Positions 24,857 through 63,410 of a stretch of DNA of 64,000 nucleotides are shown here, in pieces (within the stretch, counting starts at the first letter, position 1; every line of letters starts with the position of its first letter). This stretch comes from a virus, in IMG/VR virus record IMGVR_UViG_3300031823_000006, positions 1 through 64,000 of that record. One strand, given 5' to 3'. The notes beneath the pieces were generated by a model, which did no database searches, was not told where the DNA came from, and saw only the letters and a program-made list of their open reading frames with translations. The position numbers were made by a program, and so were the translations under genes.

Positions 24857-25236
24857 GGCAGCGCGACCAACTCTCCCGGCGTGCCGGCGACTTCACGCCA
24901 GCCGTGTTCCGGTTCGGGCTCCGTGCTCAACTCCTGCGCACACTTCTGCGCTTCACCTTCGGTCAGCGGCCCGTAGTAGGTCTGCACTTCCGGCTCACCC
25001 TCCGAGCCGGTCTGTTCCCACGCGATGAAACTCGCCGTAGGGTCAACCGCGATTCCCTCTGGCGGCGTCTGAAGTTCCGCGATCCCCCATTCGTAATCGA
25101 CGCCCTCCGGCGCGGGTTCGCTGACGCCGAGCACACCGAGCGCGGCCTTGGCTTCGTCTTCGGTGCCTGGTCCCCAATACTTCGGAGCTCCACCCTCGAA
25201 GCGACGCACCACAATGAACTGTCCCGATCCGGTCAT
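24853..25236 (-). CDS. hypothetical protein with an internal duplication
   Basis: 127 residues built of two similar halves: APKYWGPGTEDEAKAALGVL and VQTYYGPLTEGEAQKCAQEL share the Y(W/Y)GP(x)TE(x)EA(K/Q) core, each preceded by a strand with F(I) and R/W. It therefore arose by tandem duplication of about 60 residues. The motif resembles short SPOR-like or KOW-like repeats but no family can be named. Confidence 0.6.
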   Translation of the reverse strand: MTGSGQFIVVRRFEGGAPKYWGPGTEDEAKAALGVLGVSEPAPEGVDYEWGIAELQTPPEGIAVDPTASFIAWEQTGSEGEPEVQTYYGPLTEGEAQKCAQELSTEPEPEHGWREVAGTPGELVALP

Positions 25237-28037
25237 CCGCCGCTCGCCGCCTTTCGCATCGCTTGAGCATGGCTCGCACCGAGCGAGCGCAGCCTGTCAT
25301 TTCGCGCGTCTGATCCGTCGCCCTCTTGGATCGGATCGTCGTGTACGACCACGCTCTTGCCGCGCATCATCGCCATCGTGGCCGCGAGCTTACCGACGTG
25401 CCGCGCCTCGCGGTCAGTCGTCGCCGTCTCGTCCGCCGTGGAGTGAGCCTTCAGCGCGGCGTGCTCGGGGATGCGTTCACGCATCGCAGGGATCGAGACG
25501 TGGACCGCATCGTGCGGGATCGCCGTGCCTGCGCCCTTGACAGTGTGGACCGCCCCCCCACCGGGCGAGCGCGTGGCAACCATCGCCACCGGCCCACTGT
25601 CCTGCGCCTTCGGGTTGTCGAGCACGTGCTTGATGATCTGGCCGTGAACCATCGCACGACCCTTCGAGAACTTGCCTCCCTTGGCGTGGAAGTCGAACGT
25701 GTCCTTCGGGCCGCTCTTGCCGGCGATGGCGCCGATGGTGTCCTTGCGCGCACGATCGCGCTCCTGTAGGCGCGAGTCCAGGATGGCGCCCATGACGCCG
25801 CCACCGTCGCCCTGCTGCATGATGTCATCGACGGGGTGCAGTTCGTCCCACGCCACCGTCTTGATCGAGCCCGGCTGGCCGACGCCGGTGATATCGCGCA
25901 CTTCGGGCTTCGCGCTGTTCGGATCGACGCCCACAAAGCGGTGCTCCTTACCGCCGACCTTCACGCGGCTGTAGCTGTGATACCGCGTCGATCCGCCGAG
26001 ACTCGCAGGATCGTTCGACGCCGCGCTCAGCTTGAACGCATCCTTCACCGCATCCTCCGGTGTGCGCTTCTCGTCTCCGAGCGACCAGCCCGACGAGCTC
26101 CACCGGCTCGGCGTGTCAGCACGCCACACCTTGCGGCCGTCAGGCGTAGCGACGTGCGTGATCGCGTGGCCGCTCGGCAAGCGCACGGAGTCGCCAAGGT
26201 TCATCGACTTCACCCGAGCGAGAGTGTCCGCGTGGCCCAGCGGCTTCGCGCCGTCGATCTCGGCCTCCATCAGCCGACGTTCCGCCTCGGTGATCTTGCC
26301 GTGGCGTGCCTTGCGCAGCGCCTCAACCTGATTCGTGCGGATAGCGTGAGCGCGTGCCGCGGCGTGCTCGTCGCTTGTGAGCTTCACGCCCGTCAGCGCC
26401 TTACCAAACGCCGCCCGATCCTTCTTCACCATATCCGCACTACCTTTGTGCGGCGAGATGCGCCGCGCAGCCTCCAGCGCCGCCGGCTTCGGCCGCTTAT
26501 GCGCTGGCAGGTGCGACCACTCATCGGCCTCGCGGAGTTGCAGCGGCCCGTGCCCCTTGTCGGTGTCGTGCAGCGCCTTGATCGCATCGCTGTGGCGGGC
26601 GAACGTCATCATCTTGCCCTTCGGGGTGCTCGCCTTCCACAAGCCGCTGTTATGGAGAGCACCCATGCCGGTCACGTGCGTCGTCATGCCGATCACATGC
26701 TCGTGACCGCTGCCGTTGGAGCCCTTGCGCACCGAATGAACAAAGCCCTCGAAGCCCGCAAGTCCCTTCCCGTGCCCCGAGCCCAGCTTGCCGCGCCGGC
26801 TCGTGACGCCCGAGACGATCTGCTCACCCTTCCCGACGTGATCCGCCTCGCTCAGCTTGCCGGCCTTGGCGTGGCGCAATAGCACCGTCGCAGCCGACGA
26901 CGGCGACTTGACCATATCCCCGACCTGCTTGCCTTTGTCGTCGTGGATGCTGTGCATGTGGTCGGCCAGCGTCCCGTGCTTGACGATGTGGAAGCTCCCG
27001 ACGTGAATCAGATCGCTTGTCTTCATCCCTCGGATGCGCTTCGTCAGATCGCCATGCGTCGTCTTCGCGGGGTCCAACGCCTCCGCAAGCTGCTCCTGCA
27101 TCGGGTCCTTGATGCCCCACTTCTTCGCCATCTTCGAGACGAGCGCCGCGCCTTTCTTGTAGTCGCCGTGCTTCGACTTGGCGAGGATCGCGGCCGATTT
27201 CAAGTCCTCCGGCTTGCCGATCGGATAGGCGATCGAGCCGTCCGCGTTCTTGATGGCCTGCCCCTTCGCCAGAAGCGACCTGCGCTCGGCCTGATTGATC
27301 GTGCGCTCCTGCACCACGAGCACTGCGGCCTCGGCCAGCGATCCGGCCTTGTGACCCGCTAGCGGTGCCTCGCACGCCGGGCACATCTTGTCCGGCAGCT
27401 TGAGCGAGCCGCACTTCGGGCACGGACCCGCGCCCGGTGCGCTGCTGATCTTCTTCAGGTAGTTCGTGAACTTGCCGGAGCCGAGCTCGCGTGTGCGTGT
27501 CGCCTCCACAAGCGTCAGCGCTTCCGCTGCCCGCTCGGCCAGTTCGTCCAGCACGTGCTCGCGCGGTGAGAGCGGGCGCCAGTCAGCCCATTCGACACGG
27601 CCAAGCGCGGCCTCCAGCACGTCGGCGCCGAGCGTCATCTCGATCGCCTCCAGCACTTCGAGCTCGTGATCGCAGATCGCGCCGGTGTCCGTCACAGTGA
27701 CCGTCACGTCGCTGGCCTGCGTCGCCACGGCCTTCCCGGCACGATGCAAACGCGAGAGCGCACGGTCCTTCTCCCACTGGCCCACGGCGAGCGCCGACGC
27801 GGCCTTCGTGCCCTTGTCGGCATGGCGAGATTTGAGCCACCGCTTCGGCGCCGACACCGCAATAGCCTCGGCCTGAGACTGCGGCATCCCGCGCTTCGTC
27901 ATCAGCGCGTGGACGATGTGCTGAATGTAGGCCGGCTGTTCGCCGCGGTTGCCCGGCTTCAGTTTCGTCAGCCAATTGCGACCACCGTGTCCGGTGGGCT
28001 CCGGGGTCCTGGCCTTCAGAAGCGAGTCGGCGGGCAT
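25233..28037 (-). CDS. large virion-type protein of unknown function (934 residues)
   Basis: Starts at ATG 28037, 8 nt after a late -10. Residues 20-70 carry WLTKLKPGNRGEQPAYIQHI and AEAIAVSAPKRWLKS, a module frequent in actinobacterial phage head proteins. Near 205 two CxxC pairs (PCPKCGSLKL and CPACEAPL) form a zinc ribbon. Residues 265-315 read IAYPIGKPEDLKSAAILAKS with a following helix, a DUF6582-like segment. The rest is Gly/His/Lys-rich, and near residue 700 there is a basic beta region. Position after MuF and before the protease suggests an internal or injected head protein. Confidence 0.65.
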   Translation of the reverse strand: MPADSLLKARTPEPTGHGGRNWLTKLKPGNRGEQPAYIQHIVHALMTKRGMPQSQAEAIAVSAPKRWLKSRHADKGTKAASALAVGQWEKDRALSRLHRAGKAVATQASDVTVTVTDTGAICDHELEVLEAIEMTLGADVLEAALGRVEWADWRPLSPREHVLDELAERAAEALTLVEATRTRELGSGKFTNYLKKISSAPGAGPCPKCGSLKLPDKMCPACEAPLAGHKAGSLAEAAVLVVQERTINQAERRSLLAKGQAIKNADGSIAYPIGKPEDLKSAAILAKSKHGDYKKGAALVSKMAKKWGIKDPMQEQLAEALDPAKTTHGDLTKRIRGMKTSDLIHVGSFHIVKHGTLADHMHSIHDDKGKQVGDMVKSPSSAATVLLRHAKAGKLSEADHVGKGEQIVSGVTSRRGKLGSGHGKGLAGFEGFVHSVRKGSNGSGHEHVIGMTTHVTGMGALHNSGLWKASTPKGKMMTFARHSDAIKALHDTDKGHGPLQLREADEWSHLPAHKRPKPAALEAARRISPHKGSADMVKKDRAAFGKALTGVKLTSDEHAAARAHAIRTNQVEALRKARHGKITEAERRLMEAEIDGAKPLGHADTLARVKSMNLGDSVRLPSGHAITHVATPDGRKVWRADTPSRWSSSGWSLGDEKRTPEDAVKDAFKLSAASNDPASLGGSTRYHSYSRVKVGGKEHRFVGVDPNSAKPEVRDITGVGQPGSIKTVAWDELHPVDDIMQQGDGGGVMGAILDSRLQERDRARKDTIGAIAGKSGPKDTFDFHAKGGKFSKGRAMVHGQIIKHVLDNPKAQDSGPVAMVATRSPGGGAVHTVKGAGTAIPHDAVHVSIPAMRERIPEHAALKAHSTADETATTDREARHVGKLAATMAMMRGKSVVVHDDPIQEGDGSDARNDRLRSLGASHAQAMRKAASGG

Positions 28038-33562: not shown

Positions 33563-33750
33563 TGCTTACCACCGGGCCACACGTGCAACTCCGTCTCGAC
33601 GTTGTAGACGCTAAAGCGACCATCCGCATAGGCCAATTCGATCCTCTTCTCGCTTTGGAAAGCGATGCCCGTCACCTTCTCCTGCCCTCGCGCTCGCAGC
33701 ACAACGTCGCCCACGCGCACATCGCCGGCAGGTATCAGTTTCGCGCGCAT
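33559..33750 (-). CDS. small beta-barrel protein
   Basis: 63 residues from ATG 33750. Strand pattern LIPAGDVRVGDVVLRARGQE, then KRIELAYADGRFSVYNVETE resembles hint-like or SH3-like small barrels with a V(x)(V)GD(V)V motif. It is encoded right after the topoisomerase-like enzyme, perhaps as an accessory. Function unknown. Confidence 0.55.
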   Translation of the reverse strand: MRAKLIPAGDVRVGDVVLRARGQEKVTGIAFQSEKRIELAYADGRFSVYNVETELHVWPGGKQ

Positions 33751-34733
33751 CAGGCGTCCCTCGCCAGTTCGATCCCGCGAGCGATCGAATCTTCGTCGGC
33801 TGCCTCCAGATCGCACTCCTCCTCGTAGCGCTCCAGGTCCAGGTGCGCCTCGATCGCCGCCTGCACGGTCGAGGCGAGCACGTCCGGCGGCATCGCCTCA
33901 AGCTGGCATGTGTCGCCAACCCAATTCACCGAACGCGAGTCGCTGCGCTTGGGGGGAGCGGTCGGAAGATCGTGCTCGATCACCTGACCCTCGGTGAGCG
34001 CGATGCGTTCCGGGCGCAGGTCGATCGAGCGGCCCTCCGCCACGTGCTCCTTCAGCCGTCCGATGCCCTTCGCCTTCAGTCCCATCAGCCGGGCAATGTT
34101 GTCGTCCTGGCGCTGCTCCAGCGCGTGCATCGTCATCAGCACGAAGCGCCGTGCGTCTTCGCTCATGGCGTCGAAGATGGACTCGCCGCTCGGGTCGTAA
34201 TCGCCCACGTGCAGGAACACGGTCGGCACATCGCGCCGAAGCGCGCGCTGCGCGATCTCGTGCGTGACCGTGACCGACGAGAATCCCCCCGTCGAGAACA
34301 CGGGCACGCTGAACTGGTAGGCGACGCGCTGCAACTGCGGCACCATGCCTGCGGCCTCGCACCACAACTCGATCGCCACGTCCTGACCAGCGAGCCGGTT
34401 GCGCGAATAGTGCTCGCCCATTTTCTCGATTTCGTCCCAGAAGCCGCTCACGTCATCGTGGACGCGGGGAGCTCCGCCGCTCGTGCCGTCGTCCCTGATC
34501 GCGCTGAATGGGATCATCCCTGCGCGGCGCGCACGGACAAGGTGCTCACACAGCCGCGCGTAAGCCTGCTCCGTCTTGTCGTAGCCGAACTGCCCGACGA
34601 GCCGATAGAACACCTGCCGCGCCGTCACGGGCAGGAAATCCTTGTATTCGGTCAACACCGTCTGCACCTGCTGGAGCAGTTCGACCGTCTCTGCCTTCGG
34701 GCTCCAGGTGGCAAATCCACGGGGTCGTGCCAT
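33750..34733 (-). CDS. topoisomerase VI subunit A / Toprim-like protein
   Basis: 327 residues. It starts with a winged-helix type region (LPVTARQVFYRLVGQFGYDK, AYARLCEHLVRARRAGMIPF), then VAIELWCEAAGMVPQLQRVA and FSTGGFSSVTVTHEIAQRAL, and a Toprim motif TVFLHVGDYDPSGESIFDAM with the DxD acidic pair. This arrangement is seen in Spo11/TopoVIA-related proteins of actinobacterial phages. It may cleave or relax DNA, but a catalytic tyrosine and a partner B subunit were not identified, so it may act as a nuclease. Confidence 0.7.
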   Translation of the reverse strand: MARPRGFATWSPKAETVELLQQVQTVLTEYKDFLPVTARQVFYRLVGQFGYDKTEQAYARLCEHLVRARRAGMIPFSAIRDDGTSGGAPRVHDDVSGFWDEIEKMGEHYSRNRLAGQDVAIELWCEAAGMVPQLQRVAYQFSVPVFSTGGFSSVTVTHEIAQRALRRDVPTVFLHVGDYDPSGESIFDAMSEDARRFVLMTMHALEQRQDDNIARLMGLKAKGIGRLKEHVAEGRSIDLRPERIALTEGQVIEHDLPTAPPKRSDSRSVNWVGDTCQLEAMPPDVLASTVQAAIEAHLDLERYEEECDLEAADEDSIARGIELARDA

Positions 34734-36696: not shown

Positions 36697-36984
36697 TCAA
36701 TCGGTGTGGTCAAGGTCGATCCCGGCGGCATACACACCGGCGGCCACCGCGAGCTCCATCGCCGCGGCGCGCATCAGCATCAGATCGCCCGAGCCCTCAG
36801 CCTCCACGAGCCCACGCACACGTCGCCCGATCAACGCCGGCGAGCCGGTGATATCGGCCTCGACCAGCAGGTCCGTGAACTGCTGGCCGACGTTCAGCCT
36901 GGCCTCGCGCGCTTCCTCCGAGCGCTCCTTCCACTCCTGCGGCTCGTCACGCGGGACGCGGTGCGACTTCGTGCGTGCGCTCAT
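36697..36984 (-). CDS. small hypothetical protein downstream of the terminase
   Basis: 95 residues, overlapping the terminase end by four bases. Mostly helical with EREARLNVGQQFTDLL-like packing (exact: EARLNVGQQFTDLLVEADIT) and MLMRAAAMELAVAAGVYAAG. In some phages such genes between terminase and portal are head-tail or packaging accessories. No motif seen. Confidence 0.55.
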   Translation of the reverse strand: MSARTKSHRVPRDEPQEWKERSEEAREARLNVGQQFTDLLVEADITGSPALIGRRVRGLVEAEGSGDLMLMRAAAMELAVAAGVYAAGIDLDHTD

Positions 36985-38765
36985 ATCAGCGGTTCCTCAC
37001 CGAAGCCACCGTCGTAACCGCCGGTGCCCTGGCCGAACGCTCGATCCAGGTCCGTGCGCGTGAAGCCGATCTCCGCATCCGACACGGGGCGATCTTCGAG
37101 CAGTTCCCCGGCCTGCTGGCGCATCCGCAGCATCTCGACGGCCACAAGATCGTAGACCTCGGCGTGCGCATAGTCGTCCGGTCCCTGCGACACGTAGGTG
37201 CGGATCACCTTCTCGCGCTTGTTCAGTTGCGAGCGCCGGCGCGGCGCCATCAACTGCTCGACGTAGCCCGGTGGTGGCTGTCGCAGCGGGATATTGCGCA
37301 GCAGCCGAATCCCGTCCATCATCGCGTCGATCGCCTCCGTCCGATTGACGCGCACGATGTTCTCCTGATCCTTGTACCTGAAAGCTGCCTCCTCCGGTCC
37401 TCCGTACTCCACGAGCGCGCCACGGCCGGGTAGTTGCGCACACAACCCGCGCGCCAGCCGCCGCTCCGGGTTGGCGTCAATGCAGAAGAACGTGACGCGC
37501 ATCCTCACCAGCAGATCGAGCGCTTCACGGAAGCTGCCCACCGTGCCGATCCACAGCGCATAGCGGCCATCCTCGCGGAGCTCCGACACGCGCACGTTCA
37601 GATCGCGCTCGCTCGCCACATCAATCCCGGCAGTCCTGAAGATGCCCGGCCCGTACTTGACCGTCTGCGTCGCTTCACCGCCGTGCGAGCACGCCGCCAG
37701 AATCGCCTCTTCATCCAAGCTCGTCTCCGTCGGCGCATAGGCCAGCCCCAAATCGTTGTTGTAGAACGCGATCACCTGCGCCGGGCTTGTCTGCCTCGAC
37801 GCCTTCACCATCTGGATCAAGTCGCAGCGCGGCACGATCAGACGAGCCACGTGGTAGCCGCGCAGCGTCGAGTCGGGATTGGTAGCAATCCACCTGCCGC
37901 CACGGATCACGGGCTCCAGTGACGCCTCGCACGATCGGCAACAGCGCCACGCCTCTTCCACGTCGAGCGCCGTCTTGTACTCGTCGCGCCCCGGCTGCTG
38001 CACGCCCTCGACGCCGGGGTTGCGCCAGCGCACGTTCTTCCACCAGTCAAGCGGCTGCTCGTCGCCGCACTCCGCGCAGGTCACGTGCCACTTGCGCTGA
38101 TCGCTCGCGCTGAAGTATTGGTCGATCCCCTCACCTGGCCCGGTGGGAATCCCCATCCGGCGCACGCGCGGGATGCGCCCAGCCTGCCGGGCACCCGTCA
38201 AGCGCCGCTCGATCTGCGGCACGTTCGCGGGGTCGAGCTCGTTGTACTCATCGAACGTCACGCTGTCGGCGTCCACCGACTGCGCGCCGGCGCGGCTGTT
38301 GCTCCCGCGCAGGTACAGCCACCCGTTGCCGATGCGCTTGAGCTCCTTCTTCCGCACGAAGCCCGCGGGTATCTGCGCCTGTAGGAAGTCGCTCGCTTCG
38401 ATCGACGGCTCGATCCGCGAGTCCCCGAAGTCGGTCACGTGGTCGGCTGTCGGGAAGATGTAGAGGCTCGTGTCACCGAACTGCTGTGAGCGCCGCATCG
38501 CCCACCGCCACGCCTGCGTGCTCATCCCGACCTGCGTGGACTTGATGAAGATGCACTCCTCAAGTTCGGCCACGTCGTCGCTGTAGAGCTCCGTCAGATA
38601 GGGGAAGTCCTCGAAGTTGAGCACCCCAACCTTCGGCTCTGGCGCGAGCAGCGACCAGTCCATCATCGACCGGCCCTCCGTCGCTCCCGCCTGCGCTGCT
38701 CGCTGCTGCTGACGCTGCGCGACCGCGCCTCTGAAGCCTGTCTCGATCACCGCCGCGGGAGCCAT
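36981..38765 (-). CDS. terL: terminase large subunit, GpA-type
   Basis: 594 residues from ATG 38765. The ATPase half has LEECIFIKSTQVGMSTQAWR (Walker A-like KSTQVGMST) and VDADSVTFDEYNELDPANVP (Walker B region). Between ATPase and nuclease a zinc finger is formed by WHVTCAECGDEQPLDWW and WRCCRSCEASLEP. The nuclease half contains TAGIDVASERDLNVRVSEL and VTFFCIDANPERRLARGL, with acidic metal-binding positions. GpA-like terminases cut the concatemer and pump DNA into the head. No clear small subunit lies next to it. Confidence 0.88.
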   Translation of the reverse strand: MAPAAVIETGFRGAVAQRQQQRAAQAGATEGRSMMDWSLLAPEPKVGVLNFEDFPYLTELYSDDVAELEECIFIKSTQVGMSTQAWRWAMRRSQQFGDTSLYIFPTADHVTDFGDSRIEPSIEASDFLQAQIPAGFVRKKELKRIGNGWLYLRGSNSRAGAQSVDADSVTFDEYNELDPANVPQIERRLTGARQAGRIPRVRRMGIPTGPGEGIDQYFSASDQRKWHVTCAECGDEQPLDWWKNVRWRNPGVEGVQQPGRDEYKTALDVEEAWRCCRSCEASLEPVIRGGRWIATNPDSTLRGYHVARLIVPRCDLIQMVKASRQTSPAQVIAFYNNDLGLAYAPTETSLDEEAILAACSHGGEATQTVKYGPGIFRTAGIDVASERDLNVRVSELREDGRYALWIGTVGSFREALDLLVRMRVTFFCIDANPERRLARGLCAQLPGRGALVEYGGPEEAAFRYKDQENIVRVNRTEAIDAMMDGIRLLRNIPLRQPPPGYVEQLMAPRRRSQLNKREKVIRTYVSQGPDDYAHAEVYDLVAVEMLRMRQQAGELLEDRPVSDAEIGFTRTDLDRAFGQGTGGYDGGFGEEPLI

Positions 38766-38794
38766 CACCGCAGTCTATGGACGGCCTCGGAGCG

Positions 38795-51540: not shown

Positions 51541-51627
51541 GTGCTCGGGGCGGGACTCGAACCCGCACGCCACGAAGGGCAGCCGATTTTAAGTCGGCCG
51601 CGTCTGACCAATTTCGCCACCCGAGCA
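51541..51627 (-). tRNA. tRNA-Leu, anticodon TAA (reads UUA)
   Basis: Minus strand folds as a type II tRNA: acceptor TGCTCGG with CCGAGCA, D arm with GGTCAGA, anticodon stem GCCGA/TCGGC around the loop CTTAAAA (anticodon TAA), a long variable arm TGCCCTTCGTGGCG and a T arm GCGGGTTCGAGTCCCGC. The CCA end is not encoded. The UUA codon is rare in high-GC genomes, so this tRNA resembles the regulatory bldA tRNA of streptomycetes in specificity. Confidence 0.92.
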
Positions 51628-59734: not shown

Positions 59735-60118
59735 TCAGTCTTCGAGCGTTTCCCGCTCGACCTTCGGCTTCTCCGGGCGCACATACCGCTCGCCCCCACT
59801 GAAGCCGTTTGTAGGAGGCGCCTTGTAGTCGCCGGGCTTCGCGTCCGGCGTGCCGGCCTTCCCGGCGTGTGCTTCGATCGCGGCGCGCTTACTGTCGCCG
59901 GTGTACTCCCCGACGACCACCCACGCCTCAGTCTCGGTGATCGTGCCCTTCGATCCCAATGCCTCGCGCACGGCCTTCACGTCCACGCTCGTCACGTCGT
60001 CCGGCAGCACAATCACGCGCTCGCGCTTCAGGATCGTGCGCCGCGTCGGCGCGCGCTCATCCTCTGGCGCCGGCGGCTGCTTGCCCTTCCCCTTGCCTGC
60101 TGTCGTCGTCTCGGCCAT
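59735..60118 (-). CDS. hypothetical protein
   Basis: 127 residues from ATG 60118 (ACGAGGAGAAGACG upstream). A Lys/Pro-rich start, then RVIVLPDDVTSVDVKAVREA and TETEAWVVVGEYTGDSKRAA suggest a strand-helix-strand fold, and a Pro/Gly tail follows. No family recognised. Confidence 0.5.
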   Translation of the reverse strand: MAETTTAGKGKGKQPPAPEDERAPTRRTILKRERVIVLPDDVTSVDVKAVREALGSKGTITETEAWVVVGEYTGDSKRAAIEAHAGKAGTPDAKPGDYKAPPTNGFSGGERYVRPEKPKVERETLED

Positions 60119-60416
60119 CGTCTTCTCCTCGTGTCGTTTTCACCGGCTCCTCACGCCCGCACAGTTCACACCGCTCGACGTGGAAGCCCTTCTCCCGCGG
60201 CGCGATCCGCACGCCGCAGCCTGCACAATGCCCGGCCGTGTGGCCGGCAAATATCCACCGCATCCTCGACCCGCGACCGCGGCGAAGATACAGCGCCCTA
60301 CCCGGTGCCCGCTTGCGATAGCCGCGGCCAGTGAGCGGGTCGATCCACCGCTCATCAGCCGACGCCACCGCCACGAGCGCGCCGTCCGCAGGACCATCCA
60401 CGCACGGCGCGCGCAC
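60057..60416 (-). CDS. zinc-ribbon protein next to Ku
   Basis: 119 residues from GTG 60416, two bases after the Ku stop, overlapping the next gene by 62 bases. HCAGCGVRIAPREKGFHVER and CELCGREEPVK form CxxC..CxxC. The end is Asp/Arg/Gly-rich. It may bind DNA ends or RNA alongside Ku. Confidence 0.5.
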   Translation of the reverse strand: MRAPCVDGPADGALVAVASADERWIDPLTGRGYRKRAPGRALYLRRGRGSRMRWIFAGHTAGHCAGCGVRIAPREKGFHVERCELCGREEPVKTTRGEDDGRDDDSRQGEGQAAAGARG

Positions 60417-60418
60417 CG

Positions 60419-61396
60419 CTACGCCTGCGCCAACTCCAGCGACTCCTTCAAGCTGTCGAGCAGCGGCGTCTCCACCGGCTGCTCGGGCACCTTGAAGCGC
60501 TCGATCCTATCCTCCAGTGCCAGCGCCATCACCTGCTCGCGGAGCTCCAGCGCATCGTCGCGCTGCTCAGCCAGCAGCTTCGAGGAGTCAGCCATCGCGC
60601 GCACGAGCTCGGATGCGTGCTCGTACTCCGCCGGCGTCGGCGCGTCCTCGGGCTCCATGACGATCTTCGCGCGCAGCGGGAGCTCGCGCCAATCCTCGGC
60701 CCATGCCAGTTGCAGCAGCAGCAGCGAGTAGGAGTCGCCGCGCGTGAAGGGCACGAGCACGCCCGTCGCCTGGCGCTTCGTCTTCGTCCACTTCACCACC
60801 AGCGCGCGCCGGTTGTCTTTCATCGCCTGGTAAAGCAGCGCGAGCACCTTCATGGTGTCGGCGCCGTCCACGCCCACGTAGTAGGACCCGATGACGCGCT
60901 CGCGCGGTACGCGGCCAATGTCGATCGCGCCCTGAATCTCCATGACCTCCAACTCCGTGATCTTGTCGATGTGCTCCAGCGCATCGGTGCAGTCCACGAA
61001 CTTCGCGCCGCCGGCGTCCTCCTCGTAGCCCGCGGCAACCCACACACCACGGCGCACTTCGTTCGGCTTCACGACCTGGCCCGAGCCCTCCTCGACCACC
61101 ACCATCTCGACGGCCACCGAGCCCCTGACGGGCTCCCTCGCGGCCTGCGGCTCAGCGACGCCGGGATCATCGTGGTCAGGACCGGGATCGAGCGCCAGCG
61201 GGTCGGGCTTCGCCGGCGCCCCCTTCTCGGGCTCGATCGCAGCGCGCATTTTCAACTCGCCACCATGCGGTCCAGCGCTCCCAAACTTGAGCTCCTTCGC
61301 CGGGTCGGCTGTCGTCTTGAGCAACCCGACCGGCACTTCGATCGTGCCCCACTTCAGCGTCGTCTTCGCGCTGATCTTCTTCGGTGCCTCAGCCAT
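60419..61396 (-). CDS. ku: Ku-family DNA end-binding protein
   Basis: 325 residues from ATG 61396, behind a start-associated element. The Ku core can be followed: TLKWGTIEVPVGLLKTT at the N-terminus, then an unusual Pro/Asp-rich insert (about 45-85), SGQVVKPNEVRRGVWVAAGY, KITELEVMEIQGAIDIGRVP, ERVIGSYYVGVDGADTMKVL, LLYQAMKDNRRALVVKWTKT and GVLVPFTRGDSYSLLLLQLA. The helical end closes the ring. Ku encircles DNA ends for non-homologous joining. Mycobacteriophages Omega and Corndog also carry Ku, thought to help circularise genomes with short ends. No ligase LigD is seen here. Confidence 0.85.
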   Translation of the reverse strand: MAEAPKKISAKTTLKWGTIEVPVGLLKTTADPAKELKFGSAGPHGGELKMRAAIEPEKGAPAKPDPLALDPGPDHDDPGVAEPQAAREPVRGSVAVEMVVVEEGSGQVVKPNEVRRGVWVAAGYEEDAGGAKFVDCTDALEHIDKITELEVMEIQGAIDIGRVPRERVIGSYYVGVDGADTMKVLALLYQAMKDNRRALVVKWTKTKRQATGVLVPFTRGDSYSLLLLQLAWAEDWRELPLRAKIVMEPEDAPTPAEYEHASELVRAMADSSKLLAEQRDDALELREQVMALALEDRIERFKVPEQPVETPLLDSLKESLELAQA

Positions 61397-61405
61397 CGTG
61401 ATCGT

Positions 61406-61430
61406 CCTCCTGCTCGGGTAATAGCGTTAC
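61406..61430 (-). promoter_or_regulatory. start-associated element before ku, compact copy
   Basis: Minus strand GTAACGCTATTACCCGAGC: the inverted repeat and the box are fused with no spacer, so box and repeat together form a nearly perfect 7-bp-arm palindrome. AGGAGG follows. Confidence 0.65.
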
Positions 61431-61468
61431 CCACAGGCTAGACGATCCCACGGCGGAACGCTCGTCGG

Positions 61469-62491
61469 CTACCGCAACCGCTTGGCTGCCACGCGCGCCT
61501 CGCCAGCCCACACCGCACAGGCGTGATTGAACGCCGCTGACGGGTACGCATGACGGTAGGGCGGATGCTGACAGTTGTGCCCGTGCGGGTTGGCCTTCGT
61601 ATGTGCGCCCAGCAGCCGGTCGAGCTCCGCCAAGTAAGCGCGCTCCTGCGCGTGCGTACGTGGCTTCGGCTTCGGCTTCGGCCTGACGTGGGAGAGCGCA
61701 AGCGCGCCAAGGTCTTCATCTCGATCGACTTCACCGACACCCGACACGACGCACGTGCCGCACCACTGGCGCAGCTTCATCGACGCGAAACTGAAGCCCG
61801 GCAGCGGAGACGCGAGACTGAAGCTCCACTCCGCCGGCCACGACACACCGCACGCGCCGCCGCGATAGGTCCCCGGCGAGCCGTACACGCCGACGATCCA
61901 GAAGTGATGCACGAGCACCGAGACGATCCCGCACGCTCGCGGGTACGCACTTGCGACCTCAGCATCCACGTAGGCGCCGAGCGTGATGCGCCGGCGCTCG
62001 CTCGCGGCCACGGCGATCAGCGTGTCCGCCTGCGCGGTGCTGCTGTCGCCTTCAGCGAAGATGTAAACCCCGACCTGCATCCCGGCTTCGTGAGCTCCCT
62101 GGACCTGCGAGGCGAAGAACGGATTCGAGGCGTGCGCGTTATCTGCGGCCTGCACGATGACGAAGCGGATGCCCTCGCGGTAGAGCTCGCGGAACGCCGG
62201 GTGCGGTTGATAGCGCGATATGTCAATGCCCTGCGTGTGTCCGCGCAGCGCCGGCGCGAGCTCCCCGAACTTCGGATGCTCGGGTTTGACGCCGTGGGCT
62301 TCAATTTCCTGGCGGATACATTCGCCCATCTCCGGCGGCTGCTTTGGATGACAGACGAACGGCGAGCTCGCCGGCGTCGTCACAGGCGGATGCGCCGCTG
62401 GCGCCGAGTGCGTGGTGCTCTTGCCGCACGCGCCGAGCGTAGCCGCGAGCAGGATCAGCAGAAGGGTGGGAAGTCGAAAGCGCTTTGTCAT
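61469..62491 (-). CDS. GH25 muramidase with lipoprotein signal
   Basis: 340 residues from ATG 62491 (MTKRFRLPTLLLILLAATLG, with AC and GKS directly after: a lipobox LGAC). A Pro/Ser/Thr linker leads to the catalytic domain: GHTQGIDISRYQPHPAFREL, FVIVQAADNAHASNPFFASQ, GMQVGVYIFAEGD and YVDAEVASAYPRACGIVSVL, which provides the D-x-E pair of GH25 lysozymes. A C-terminal extension has several Lys/Pro repeats and His. It cuts peptidoglycan; as a lipoprotein it would be membrane-held, which is unusual for an endolysin. Confidence 0.82.
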   Translation of the reverse strand: MTKRFRLPTLLLILLAATLGACGKSTTHSAPAAHPPVTTPASSPFVCHPKQPPEMGECIRQEIEAHGVKPEHPKFGELAPALRGHTQGIDISRYQPHPAFRELYREGIRFVIVQAADNAHASNPFFASQVQGAHEAGMQVGVYIFAEGDSSTAQADTLIAVAASERRRITLGAYVDAEVASAYPRACGIVSVLVHHFWIVGVYGSPGTYRGGACGVSWPAEWSFSLASPLPGFSFASMKLRQWCGTCVVSGVGEVDRDEDLGALALSHVRPKPKPKPRTHAQERAYLAELDRLLGAHTKANPHGHNCQHPPYRHAYPSAAFNHACAVWAGEARVAAKRLR

Positions 62492-62522
62492 GCAGGGGAA
62501 GCTACCCCCGCGTCCAGACAGG

Positions 62523-62630
62523 TCAGTCAAGTTCGCCAAGGTAGCGAGCGAAGTGCAACCACTCCACCAGCCCGAAGATCGCCGCACCCACGACGATCAC
62601 CAGTCCTGCCAGCCACAACCACTTACCCAT
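62523..62630 (-). CDS. 35-residue membrane protein beside the lysin
   Basis: ATG 62630 to TGA 62523 (MGKWLWLAGLVIVVGAAIFG, then LVEWLHFARYLGEL). One transmembrane helix fills most of the peptide. It sits just upstream of the GH25 gene in transcription order, so it is a candidate holin or lysis regulator. Confidence 0.55.
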   Translation of the reverse strand: MGKWLWLAGLVIVVGAAIFGLVEWLHFARYLGELD

Positions 62631-62640
62631 GCGTCAGAGC

Positions 62641-62823
62641 CTAGTAGCTCGACCAGCGGCCATCCTCAAGCGCCGGCAACTCGTCCAGCGCTTCGCGCAA
62701 CGCGAGCTCGATCGACTCCGCAGGATCACTCAGCCTGAAGCGGATCGAGCGCTGCGCCACTGTCTTCTCCTCGTCCATATCGTCCAGCCGGAGCACCACC
62801 GCAGCTTCGACGTTGCGCGCCAT
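62641..62823 (-). CDS. small hypothetical protein
   Basis: 60 residues. VEAAVVLRLDDMDEEKTVAQ then SIRFRLSDPAESIELALREA, alternating strands and a final helix. Start overlaps the stop of the J-domain gene. Confidence 0.5.
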   Translation of the reverse strand: MARNVEAAVVLRLDDMDEEKTVAQRSIRFRLSDPAESIELALREALDELPALEDGRWSSY

Positions 62824-63410
62824 CAGGACTTGCCAGCTTCCCGCGCTGCGATCACGTCACGGAAGTCGTCGGGGTTGCCACCGTGATCCGGGTGAGCATC
62901 ATGGAGCGCCTGCTTTATGTCGCCGCCGGCGCGCTCGATCAGCACCTTCCCGCGTGCGACATTGCCGCCCGAGCCGATCGTGCCAGCGGGCAGCATCTTC
63001 CAACCCGCATACTGCTCGCCGCGGCGCGTCACGCCGTAGCGATCGACCGCACGCAGAGCCTCCAGTCCGAGCGCGATGGCGCGCACGTTGTCCTTCCAAT
63101 CGGTGAAGGTGGCGATCTCATAGCGGAGCTCCGGCTGGCCTGCCACAGCCATCGCCGTGAAGCTCAGCACGATCCCCGGTGTCCGAGCGCTGCGATCAGC
63201 ACGCGGGAGCCCGTCCTGGCGAATGTCCTGCTCGCGCAGATCGACCTCCAGCACCACGCGCCGCGCATCGTGCGCCGCAAGCTCCTTTGCCAGCAGCGCC
63301 ACCGTGCGCGGCCACGGCGCCTTGAAAGGTGAGTAGCGAGTCGGCCCGTTCGTCACTGGCCGTTCAAGCGGCCGGAACGTCACGAGCCGCGCAAGGTCGG
63401 CGTAGGACAC
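62823..63410 (-). CDS. J-domain (DnaJ-like) protein
   Basis: 195 residues. The first 120 form an alpha/beta domain with VVLEVDLREQDIRQDG and YEIATFTDWKDNVRAIALGL. The end GDIKQALHDAHPDHGGNPDD has the HPD motif of J domains followed by FRDVIAAREAGK. The DnaJ HPD motif recruits Hsp70/DnaK. Many actinobacterial phages have a similar fusion with a terminal J domain. It may couple host DnaK to replication or assembly. Confidence 0.72.
   Translation of the reverse strand: MSYADLARLVTFRPLERPVTNGPTRYSPFKAPWPRTVALLAKELAAHDARRVVLEVDLREQDIRQDGLPRADRSARTPGIVLSFTAMAVAGQPELRYEIATFTDWKDNVRAIALGLEALRAVDRYGVTRRGEQYAGWKMLPAGTIGSGGNVARGKVLIERAGGDIKQALHDAHPDHGGNPDDFRDVIAAREAGKS

What the first reader, a model, noticed from the sequence alone, without database searches (positions are those of the whole stretch)
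60419..61396. Phage-encoded Ku protein with an acidic/proline insert
A clear Ku core, known only in a few phages (for example Omega and Corndog of mycobacteria, where Ku is thought to help circularise ends). Here it is in a contractile-tailed phage, directly beside a zinc-ribbon protein and under the most compact start-associated element. The insert after residue 45 is not typical of bacterial Ku.
Basis: partly seen in the sequence, partly recalled or inferred. Interest (0 to 1): 0.8.

Follow-up and report, generated by a model that had tools for sequence, protein, structure and literature searches.

The report
Unusual Ku protein in an environmental phage
A virus of (probably actinobacterial) bacteria carries a divergent version of Ku, the protein that clamps onto broken DNA ends, with a conserved extra loop and with the contact that normally lets bacterial Ku pull two ends together naturally replaced, which makes it a new and testable variant of a known kind of protein.

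Summary
The ORF at 60419-61396 (minus strand, 325 aa) is a real, divergent Ku: Pfam Ku at 42.9 bits against a cut-off of 25, and Foldseek matches led by solved Ku structures. The phage has a contractile tail and Ku is followed by a zinc-ribbon gene, as claimed. A related phage (IMGVR_UViG_3300036803_000040, TerL 51% identical) has an orthologous Ku with the same insert and the same two downstream genes. The insert starts after about residue 53, not 45; none of 53 other viral and two bacterial Ku has an internal insert of 10 aa or more. Ku is not confined to a few phages: 82 phage records and 54 IMG/VR contigs matched. New point: the GLVN loop that joins bacterial Ku dimers across a break is GTIE here and GAVE in the relative; in B. 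subtilis Ku the mutations L30G or N32E at these positions abolish oligomers but not DNA binding (PMC12784961). No ligase gene was found. I read it as an end-binding Ku specialised away from filament synapsis, protecting ends or passing them to the phage RecT/nuclease set or a host ligase. Circularisation as proposed for Corndog is possible but untested; virion ends are unknown.

The parts
60419..61396 (-). Ku-family protein gene, 325 aa
   Evidence: PF02735 above cut-off; fold search top hits all Ku; ortholog in relative phage
60665..61108 (-). Ku beta-barrel domain match, residues 97-244
   Evidence: Pfam PF02735 positions 36-176
61337..61348 (-). hairpin-1 loop G17-T18-I19-E20, where bacterial Ku has GLV[NST]
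   Evidence: gap-free alignment; Leu in 40 of 43 other Ku, Glu in none at the fourth position; mutants in PMC12784961 and PMC12658125
61112..61237 (-). acidic/proline insert, about residues 54-95, conserved core DPLAxDPGP..DPG
60425..60463 (-). minimal C-terminal helix, residues 312-324; no basic extension follows
   Evidence: model secondary structure; column comparison
61406..61433 (-). start-associated element GGGTAACGCTATTACCCGAGC plus ribosome-binding AGGAGG
60057..60416 (-). zinc-ribbon protein (GTG start), directly downstream of Ku, conserved in the relative
59735..60118 (-). conserved third gene of the Ku locus, 127 aa, unknown function
   Evidence: 43% identical ortholog at the same place in the relative
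61469..62491 (-). GH25 lysozyme gene upstream of Ku (ORF runs to 62587; ATG at 62491 precedes a lipoprotein-like signal, start inferred)
   Evidence: PF01183 E 1.3e-13
36981..38768 (-). large terminase subunit, gpA family
   Evidence: PF05876 E 9.7e-22

Best explanation
The gene encodes a true Ku-family protein of a contractile-tailed phage whose host is probably an actinobacterium. By homology it should form a dimeric ring that threads onto double-stranded DNA ends (inferred). In this phage lineage the ring appears specialised: the loop by which bacterial Ku dimers stack end to end and bridge a break is replaced (shown in sequence), the basic C-terminal tail is missing (shown), and the bridge region carries a conserved acidic/proline insert (shown). 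The most likely action is capping of phage DNA ends during early infection and replication: protecting them from host nucleases and passing them either to the phage's own RecT / PD-(D/E)XK / RusA recombination set or to a host ligase, with bridging, if any, done by another surface or by a partner such as the zinc-ribbon protein (inferred).
For: Ku identity; the two-row phage profile alone finds M. tuberculosis Ku at E 1.9e-5 and human Ku80 at 5e-5, and a profile of 55 other Ku scores the two proteins 69.7 and 110.6 bits. Kept: ortholog at 39-46% identity in a phage whose terminase is 51% identical, with the insert and two downstream genes. Loss of synapsis loop: GLVN becomes GTIE and GAVE; B. 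subtilis N32E and L30G, and M. tuberculosis L13A/V14A, bind DNA but do not form oligomers (PMC12784961; PMC12658125). Some DNA-contact positions kept: K7, R116, Y172, R237, and probably K49/R51 by the fragment alignment. Recombination genes on the same strand: RecT, PD-(D/E)XK nuclease, RusA; in the relative, Ku and RecT start under the same element. No ATP-dependent ligase domain in either phage.
Against: Several DNA-contact positions are also changed (K36 to G, K106 to E, R126 to G), so DNA binding itself is not certain. The minimal C-terminal helix, which stimulates LigD ligation in M. tuberculosis Ku (PMC9638933), is kept in outline, which favours a ligation role. The fourth loop position varies (S, T or N) among other Ku, and the published mutants were made in other proteins. 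Only two members of this lineage are known.
Confidence: 0.45

Rival explanations
1. Corndog/Omega model: Ku binds the ends of the injected linear genome, which carry short overhangs, and with host LigD joins them into a circle.
For: No ligase domain found in the phage, as in the two mycobacteriophage records tested; minimal C-terminal helix kept; terminase of the gpA family, which includes the cos phage lambda (family knowledge); proposed for Corndog and Omega in PMC4351075 and PMC3706429, which cite Pitcher 2006; M. tuberculosis Ku can circularise DNA in vitro (PMC12658125).
Against: The loop needed for that kind of bridging is replaced here but kept in Corndog and Omega relatives. Virion ends unknown; no terminal repeat; full-length terminase relatives include Bacillus phage Troll, of a group known for long terminal repeats (group knowledge). 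Host and host LigD unknown.
Confidence: 0.3
2. Counter-defence repair: Ku with a host ligase rejoins phage DNA cut by restriction enzymes or CRISPR nucleases.
For: Predicted end binding plus early-type gene neighbourhood; does not require fixed virion ends.
Against: No direct evidence; needs synapsis, whose loop is lost; the phage already encodes a recombination set that could do this.
Confidence: 0.1
3. Interference with host end joining: the phage Ku occupies ends, or pairs with host Ku, as a non-filament form and blocks host NHEJ, leaving ends for phage recombination.
For: Carries natural equivalents of oligomerisation-defective mutations (PMC12784961); shares a start element with RecT in the relative.
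Against: No evidence of contact with host Ku; dimer interface not tested; host Ku unknown.
Confidence: 0.1
4. Neutral passenger gene without present function.
For: Mosaic phage genomes carry many such genes; long branch.
Against: Kept with insert, start element and neighbours in two phages whose terminases are about 50% identical.
Confidence: 0.05

Closest known systems
Mycobacteriophage Ku, clusters O (Corndog, Catdawg, Dylan) and J (Omega)
   Same: Phage-encoded Ku; same predicted fold (Foldseek 1.2e-13 to the Dylan Ku); no ATP-ligase domain in the two mycobacteriophage records tested
   Different: No tblastn match; separate 100/100 clade on a branch of 2.18; insert; GLV[NT] loop lost; no Lsr2-like or basic tail; contractile tail instead of a siphovirus tail
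Bacterial Ku (M. tuberculosis, B. subtilis)
   Same: Core barrel and helices, minimal C-terminal helix, top solved-structure matches
   Different: About 17-18% identity in the structural alignments; hairpin-1 GLVN replaced; CxxC knuckle absent; extended basic C-terminus absent; insert of about 42 aa
Mu Gam
   Same: Proposed activity: phage protein that binds and protects DNA ends (PMC1378119)
   Different: Only Ku families matched in Pfam and PHROGs; the sequence belongs to bacterial-type Ku

Membership tests
Ku family (PF02735) | Sequence match to the Ku beta-barrel above the curated cut-off | tested here: met
   42.9 bits against 25; relative 57.1 bits
Ku family (PF02735) | Ku fold | tested here: met
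   44-row AlphaFold2 model pLDDT 73.5, barrel about 85-93; Foldseek top 5.1e-13 Mtb Ku. The rows include other Ku; the two-row model without them has low confidence (pLDDT 38) but also ranks Ku first
Ku family (PF02735) | Dimeric ring that binds DNA ends | not testable with these tools
   Only monomers can be modelled; contact positions partly kept
Filament-forming bacterial Ku | Hairpin-1 GLVN-type loop that joins dimers across a break | tested here: not met
   GTIE and GAVE; Leu 40/43 and S/T/N 40/43 in other Ku
Bacterial two-component NHEJ (Ku plus LigD) | Minimal C-terminal region of Ku | tested here: inconclusive
   L251, L255 and S258 columns kept, D247 and D250 not
Bacterial two-component NHEJ (Ku plus LigD) | Ligase partner encoded by the same genome | tested here: not met
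   No PF01068 match in the virus record or its relative; none among the genes scanned with Pfam. Host unknown; a short stretch is missing from the record
Corndog/Omega circularisation Ku | Virion genome with short cohesive ends | not testable with these tools
   No reads or virion DNA; contig ends uninformative
Corndog/Omega circularisation Ku | Falls with those proteins in a tree | tested here: not met
   Separate clade, 100/100
Mu Gam | Gam-family sequence match | tested here: not met
   Only Ku families matched

The most novel reading that the evidence does not exclude
A lineage of phage Ku that has evolved naturally into an end-capping, filament-deficient form, its bridging replaced by the acidic/proline loop and the adjacent zinc-ribbon protein, and expressed with RecT so that it steers phage DNA ends between recombination and host-ligase joining.
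Probability: 0.2. Interest if true: 0.75.

Novelty: new variant of a known kind. Interest (0 to 1): 0.55.

Why it matters
Recent structural studies (2025-2026) argue that the hairpin-1 loop makes Ku oligomerisation a general property of bacterial Ku. This phage pair carries, in nature, the kind of substitution that those studies made to destroy oligomerisation, while keeping the gene, its insert and its neighbours. That makes a direct test possible: can a Ku do useful work in a cell without that interface, and what replaces it? The survey also shows that phage Ku is spread well beyond mycobacteriophages and sometimes lies in a record with an ATP-dependent ligase domain, so phages are a broad reservoir for studying minimal end joining.

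Tried and rejected
Searches with the Ku protein alone found nothing in phage records or IMG/VR, and pair alignments of Ku or terminase found nothing in the genome collection, so relatives came through the terminase in IMG/VR. Scans with the Ku pair, terminase pair and capsid pair gave one near-complete relative and two fragments without a Ku match. Terminal repeats were sought and not found. The two-row structure prediction was too poor to stand alone. The MAFFT placement of the insert after residue 45 was rejected in favour of the profile alignment of the N-terminal part, which runs on to residue 50; a few residues either way remain uncertain. A host could not be identified; only the DnaJ-like neighbour, whose relatives are actinophages in 81 of 82 records, points to Actinomycetota. 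Reading the gpA-type terminase as proof of cohesive ends was rejected because its relatives include phages of groups with long terminal repeats. A claim that contractile tail plus Ku is unique was rejected.

Full report
What is there. The open frame at 60419-61396 on the minus strand is 325 codons long with an ATG start and a third-position GC of 0.89. It matches Pfam Ku at 42.9 bits against a cut-off of 25 and PHROG 4873, 'Ku-like DNA end binding'. The window is part of a 70,150-base virus record. Tail sheath, baseplate wedge, tape measure, head maturation protease, portal and a gpA-type terminase are present, so this is a contractile-tailed phage.

Is it Ku? A structure predicted with 44 rows has mean pLDDT 73.5, with the barrel at about 85-93. 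Foldseek puts solved bacterial Ku first (M. tuberculosis, 5.1e-13), then human Ku, and the Ku of mycobacteriophage Dylan first among viral models (1.2e-13). TM-scores are modest (0.40-0.59), as expected with a flexible bridge and an insert. Because the 44 rows include other Ku, I checked independently: a profile of only this protein and its ortholog finds M. tuberculosis Ku at E 1.9e-5 and human Ku80 at 5e-5 in the PDB sequences, and a profile of 55 other Ku that leaves both out scores them at 69.7 and 110.6 bits. A two-row model is too poor to rely on (pLDDT 38) but also ranks Ku first.

Is it kept? Through the terminase I found one near-complete relative, IMGVR_UViG_3300036803_000040 (75,614 bases; terminase 51%, capsid protease 58% identical). 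It encodes a 340-aa Ku, 39-46% identical, with the insert, followed in the same order by orthologs of the zinc-ribbon gene (60057-60416) and the next gene (59735-60118). The two contigs are the same gene circle opened at different points, and ours lacks about 2-3 kb between RecT and the tail fibre by comparison.

How common is phage Ku? With a Streptomyces plasmid Ku as query, 82 phage records match, 81 of them mycobacteriophages; an alignment of plasmid and phage Ku found 54 IMG/VR contigs. Among 46 records tested, 11 also have an ATP-dependent ligase domain; ours and the relative have none. Three other records have sheath-like matches. In a tree of 48 Ku our pair is a 100/100 clade on a branch of 2.18 changes per column. 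It has no tblastn match in the phage collection.

The insert. The N-terminal part aligns with other Ku without large gaps up to about residue 50 (GGELKM against the strand that reads GRIRYK in M. tuberculosis Ku), and the rest resumes at about 96. So the insert is about residues 54-95, at the place of the CxxC knuckle of many bacterial Ku, within the bridge that crosses the DNA (bridge as defined in PMC12784962). The core DPLAxDPGP..DPG is shared by both phages. No other Ku in the set of 53 viral and two bacterial sequences has an internal insert of 10 or more residues.

The loop. Cryo-EM studies show that bacterial Ku dimers stack across a break through the hairpin-1 loop, GLVN. In B. subtilis Ku, L30G and N32E stop oligomers without significant loss of DNA binding (PMC12784961). 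In M. tuberculosis Ku, L13A/V14A binds DNA but forms no filaments, and the equivalent change fails to complement in M. smegmatis (PMC12658125). The alignment here has no gap: GTIE in this phage and GAVE in the relative. Among 43 other non-redundant Ku the second position is Leu in 40, and the fourth is Ser, Thr or Asn in 40 and never Glu; the Corndog and Omega types keep the loop. The Lys that follows (VPVK) is Gly in both. DNA-contact positions are mixed: K7, R116, Y172 and R237 remain, others are lost. The basic C-terminal extension is absent; the minimal C-terminal helix is kept in outline. In M. tuberculosis Ku the minimal region is enough to stimulate ligation (PMC9638933).

Setting. Upstream on the same strand lie RecT, a PD-(D/E)XK nuclease, an HTH protein of the kind that starts replication, a DnaC/IstB-like ATPase and a RusA-type resolvase. 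The palindromic element GTAACNNNRTTAC is over-represented (16 strand matches, 0.6 expected) and precedes gene starts. A related element occurs three times in the relative, among them at Ku and at RecT. It resembles the extended start-associated sequences of cluster K mycobacteriophages in layout, not in letters (PMC3203893). A nearby DnaJ-like gene (62823-63410) has relatives in actinophages in 81 of 82 records, which suggests an actinobacterial host.

Mechanism. Shown: Ku homology, conservation, insert, replaced loop, lost tail, no ligase found, shared element. Inferred: dimeric ring, end binding, loss of filament synapsis, role in protecting or passing on ends. I favour end capping in the recombination and replication stage (0.45) over Corndog-type circularisation with host LigD (0.3). 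Virion ends cannot be read from these data.

Verdict. A genuine member of the Ku family and a new variant of phage Ku. The most interesting feature is not the one flagged but the natural replacement of the synapsis loop.

Noticed in passing
window, 8 sites: 35232, 44194, 46768, 49588, 51521, 56673, 59245, 61418 (13 bp each): Palindromic element GTAACGCTGTTAC followed by ACCCGAG and AGGAG upstream of gene starts; far above chance. Regulator unknown.
   Followed up: partly
relative phage G001: 6305, 22886 (Ku) and 31917 (RecT), minus strand: A related element, GTTATC-N9-(A/T)ACCCCGAG-AGGAG, precedes Ku, RecT and one other gene.
   Followed up: partly
window 51541-51626 and L013 3922-3993: tRNA-Leu lies directly upstream of one copy of the element; in the relative a tRNA-Pro lies directly upstream of the Ku start element.
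   Followed up: no
window 33750-34733: PHROG 'DNA topoisomerase', 67% identical to the relative, the most conserved gene seen; no Pfam match; motif GDYDPSGESIF suggests a Toprim-type fold.
   Followed up: partly
window 61469-62587: GH25 lysozyme with a lipoprotein-like signal (LLLILLAATLGAC) if translation starts at the ATG at 62491, next to Ku.
   Followed up: no
window 25233-28037: 934-aa protein between portal and capsid genes with a weak Zeta toxin-like match at its C-terminus (E 1.8e-4, just below cut-off).
   Followed up: no
G010, G016, G046 and other IMG/VR records: Viral contigs with Ku and an ATP-dependent ligase domain close by, possible phage-borne two-part end joining; viral nature of each not checked.
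   Followed up: partly
window or L002, one of 58 small genes scanned: A GroES-type co-chaperonin (Cpn10, E 1.8e-23); the member was not identified.
   Followed up: no
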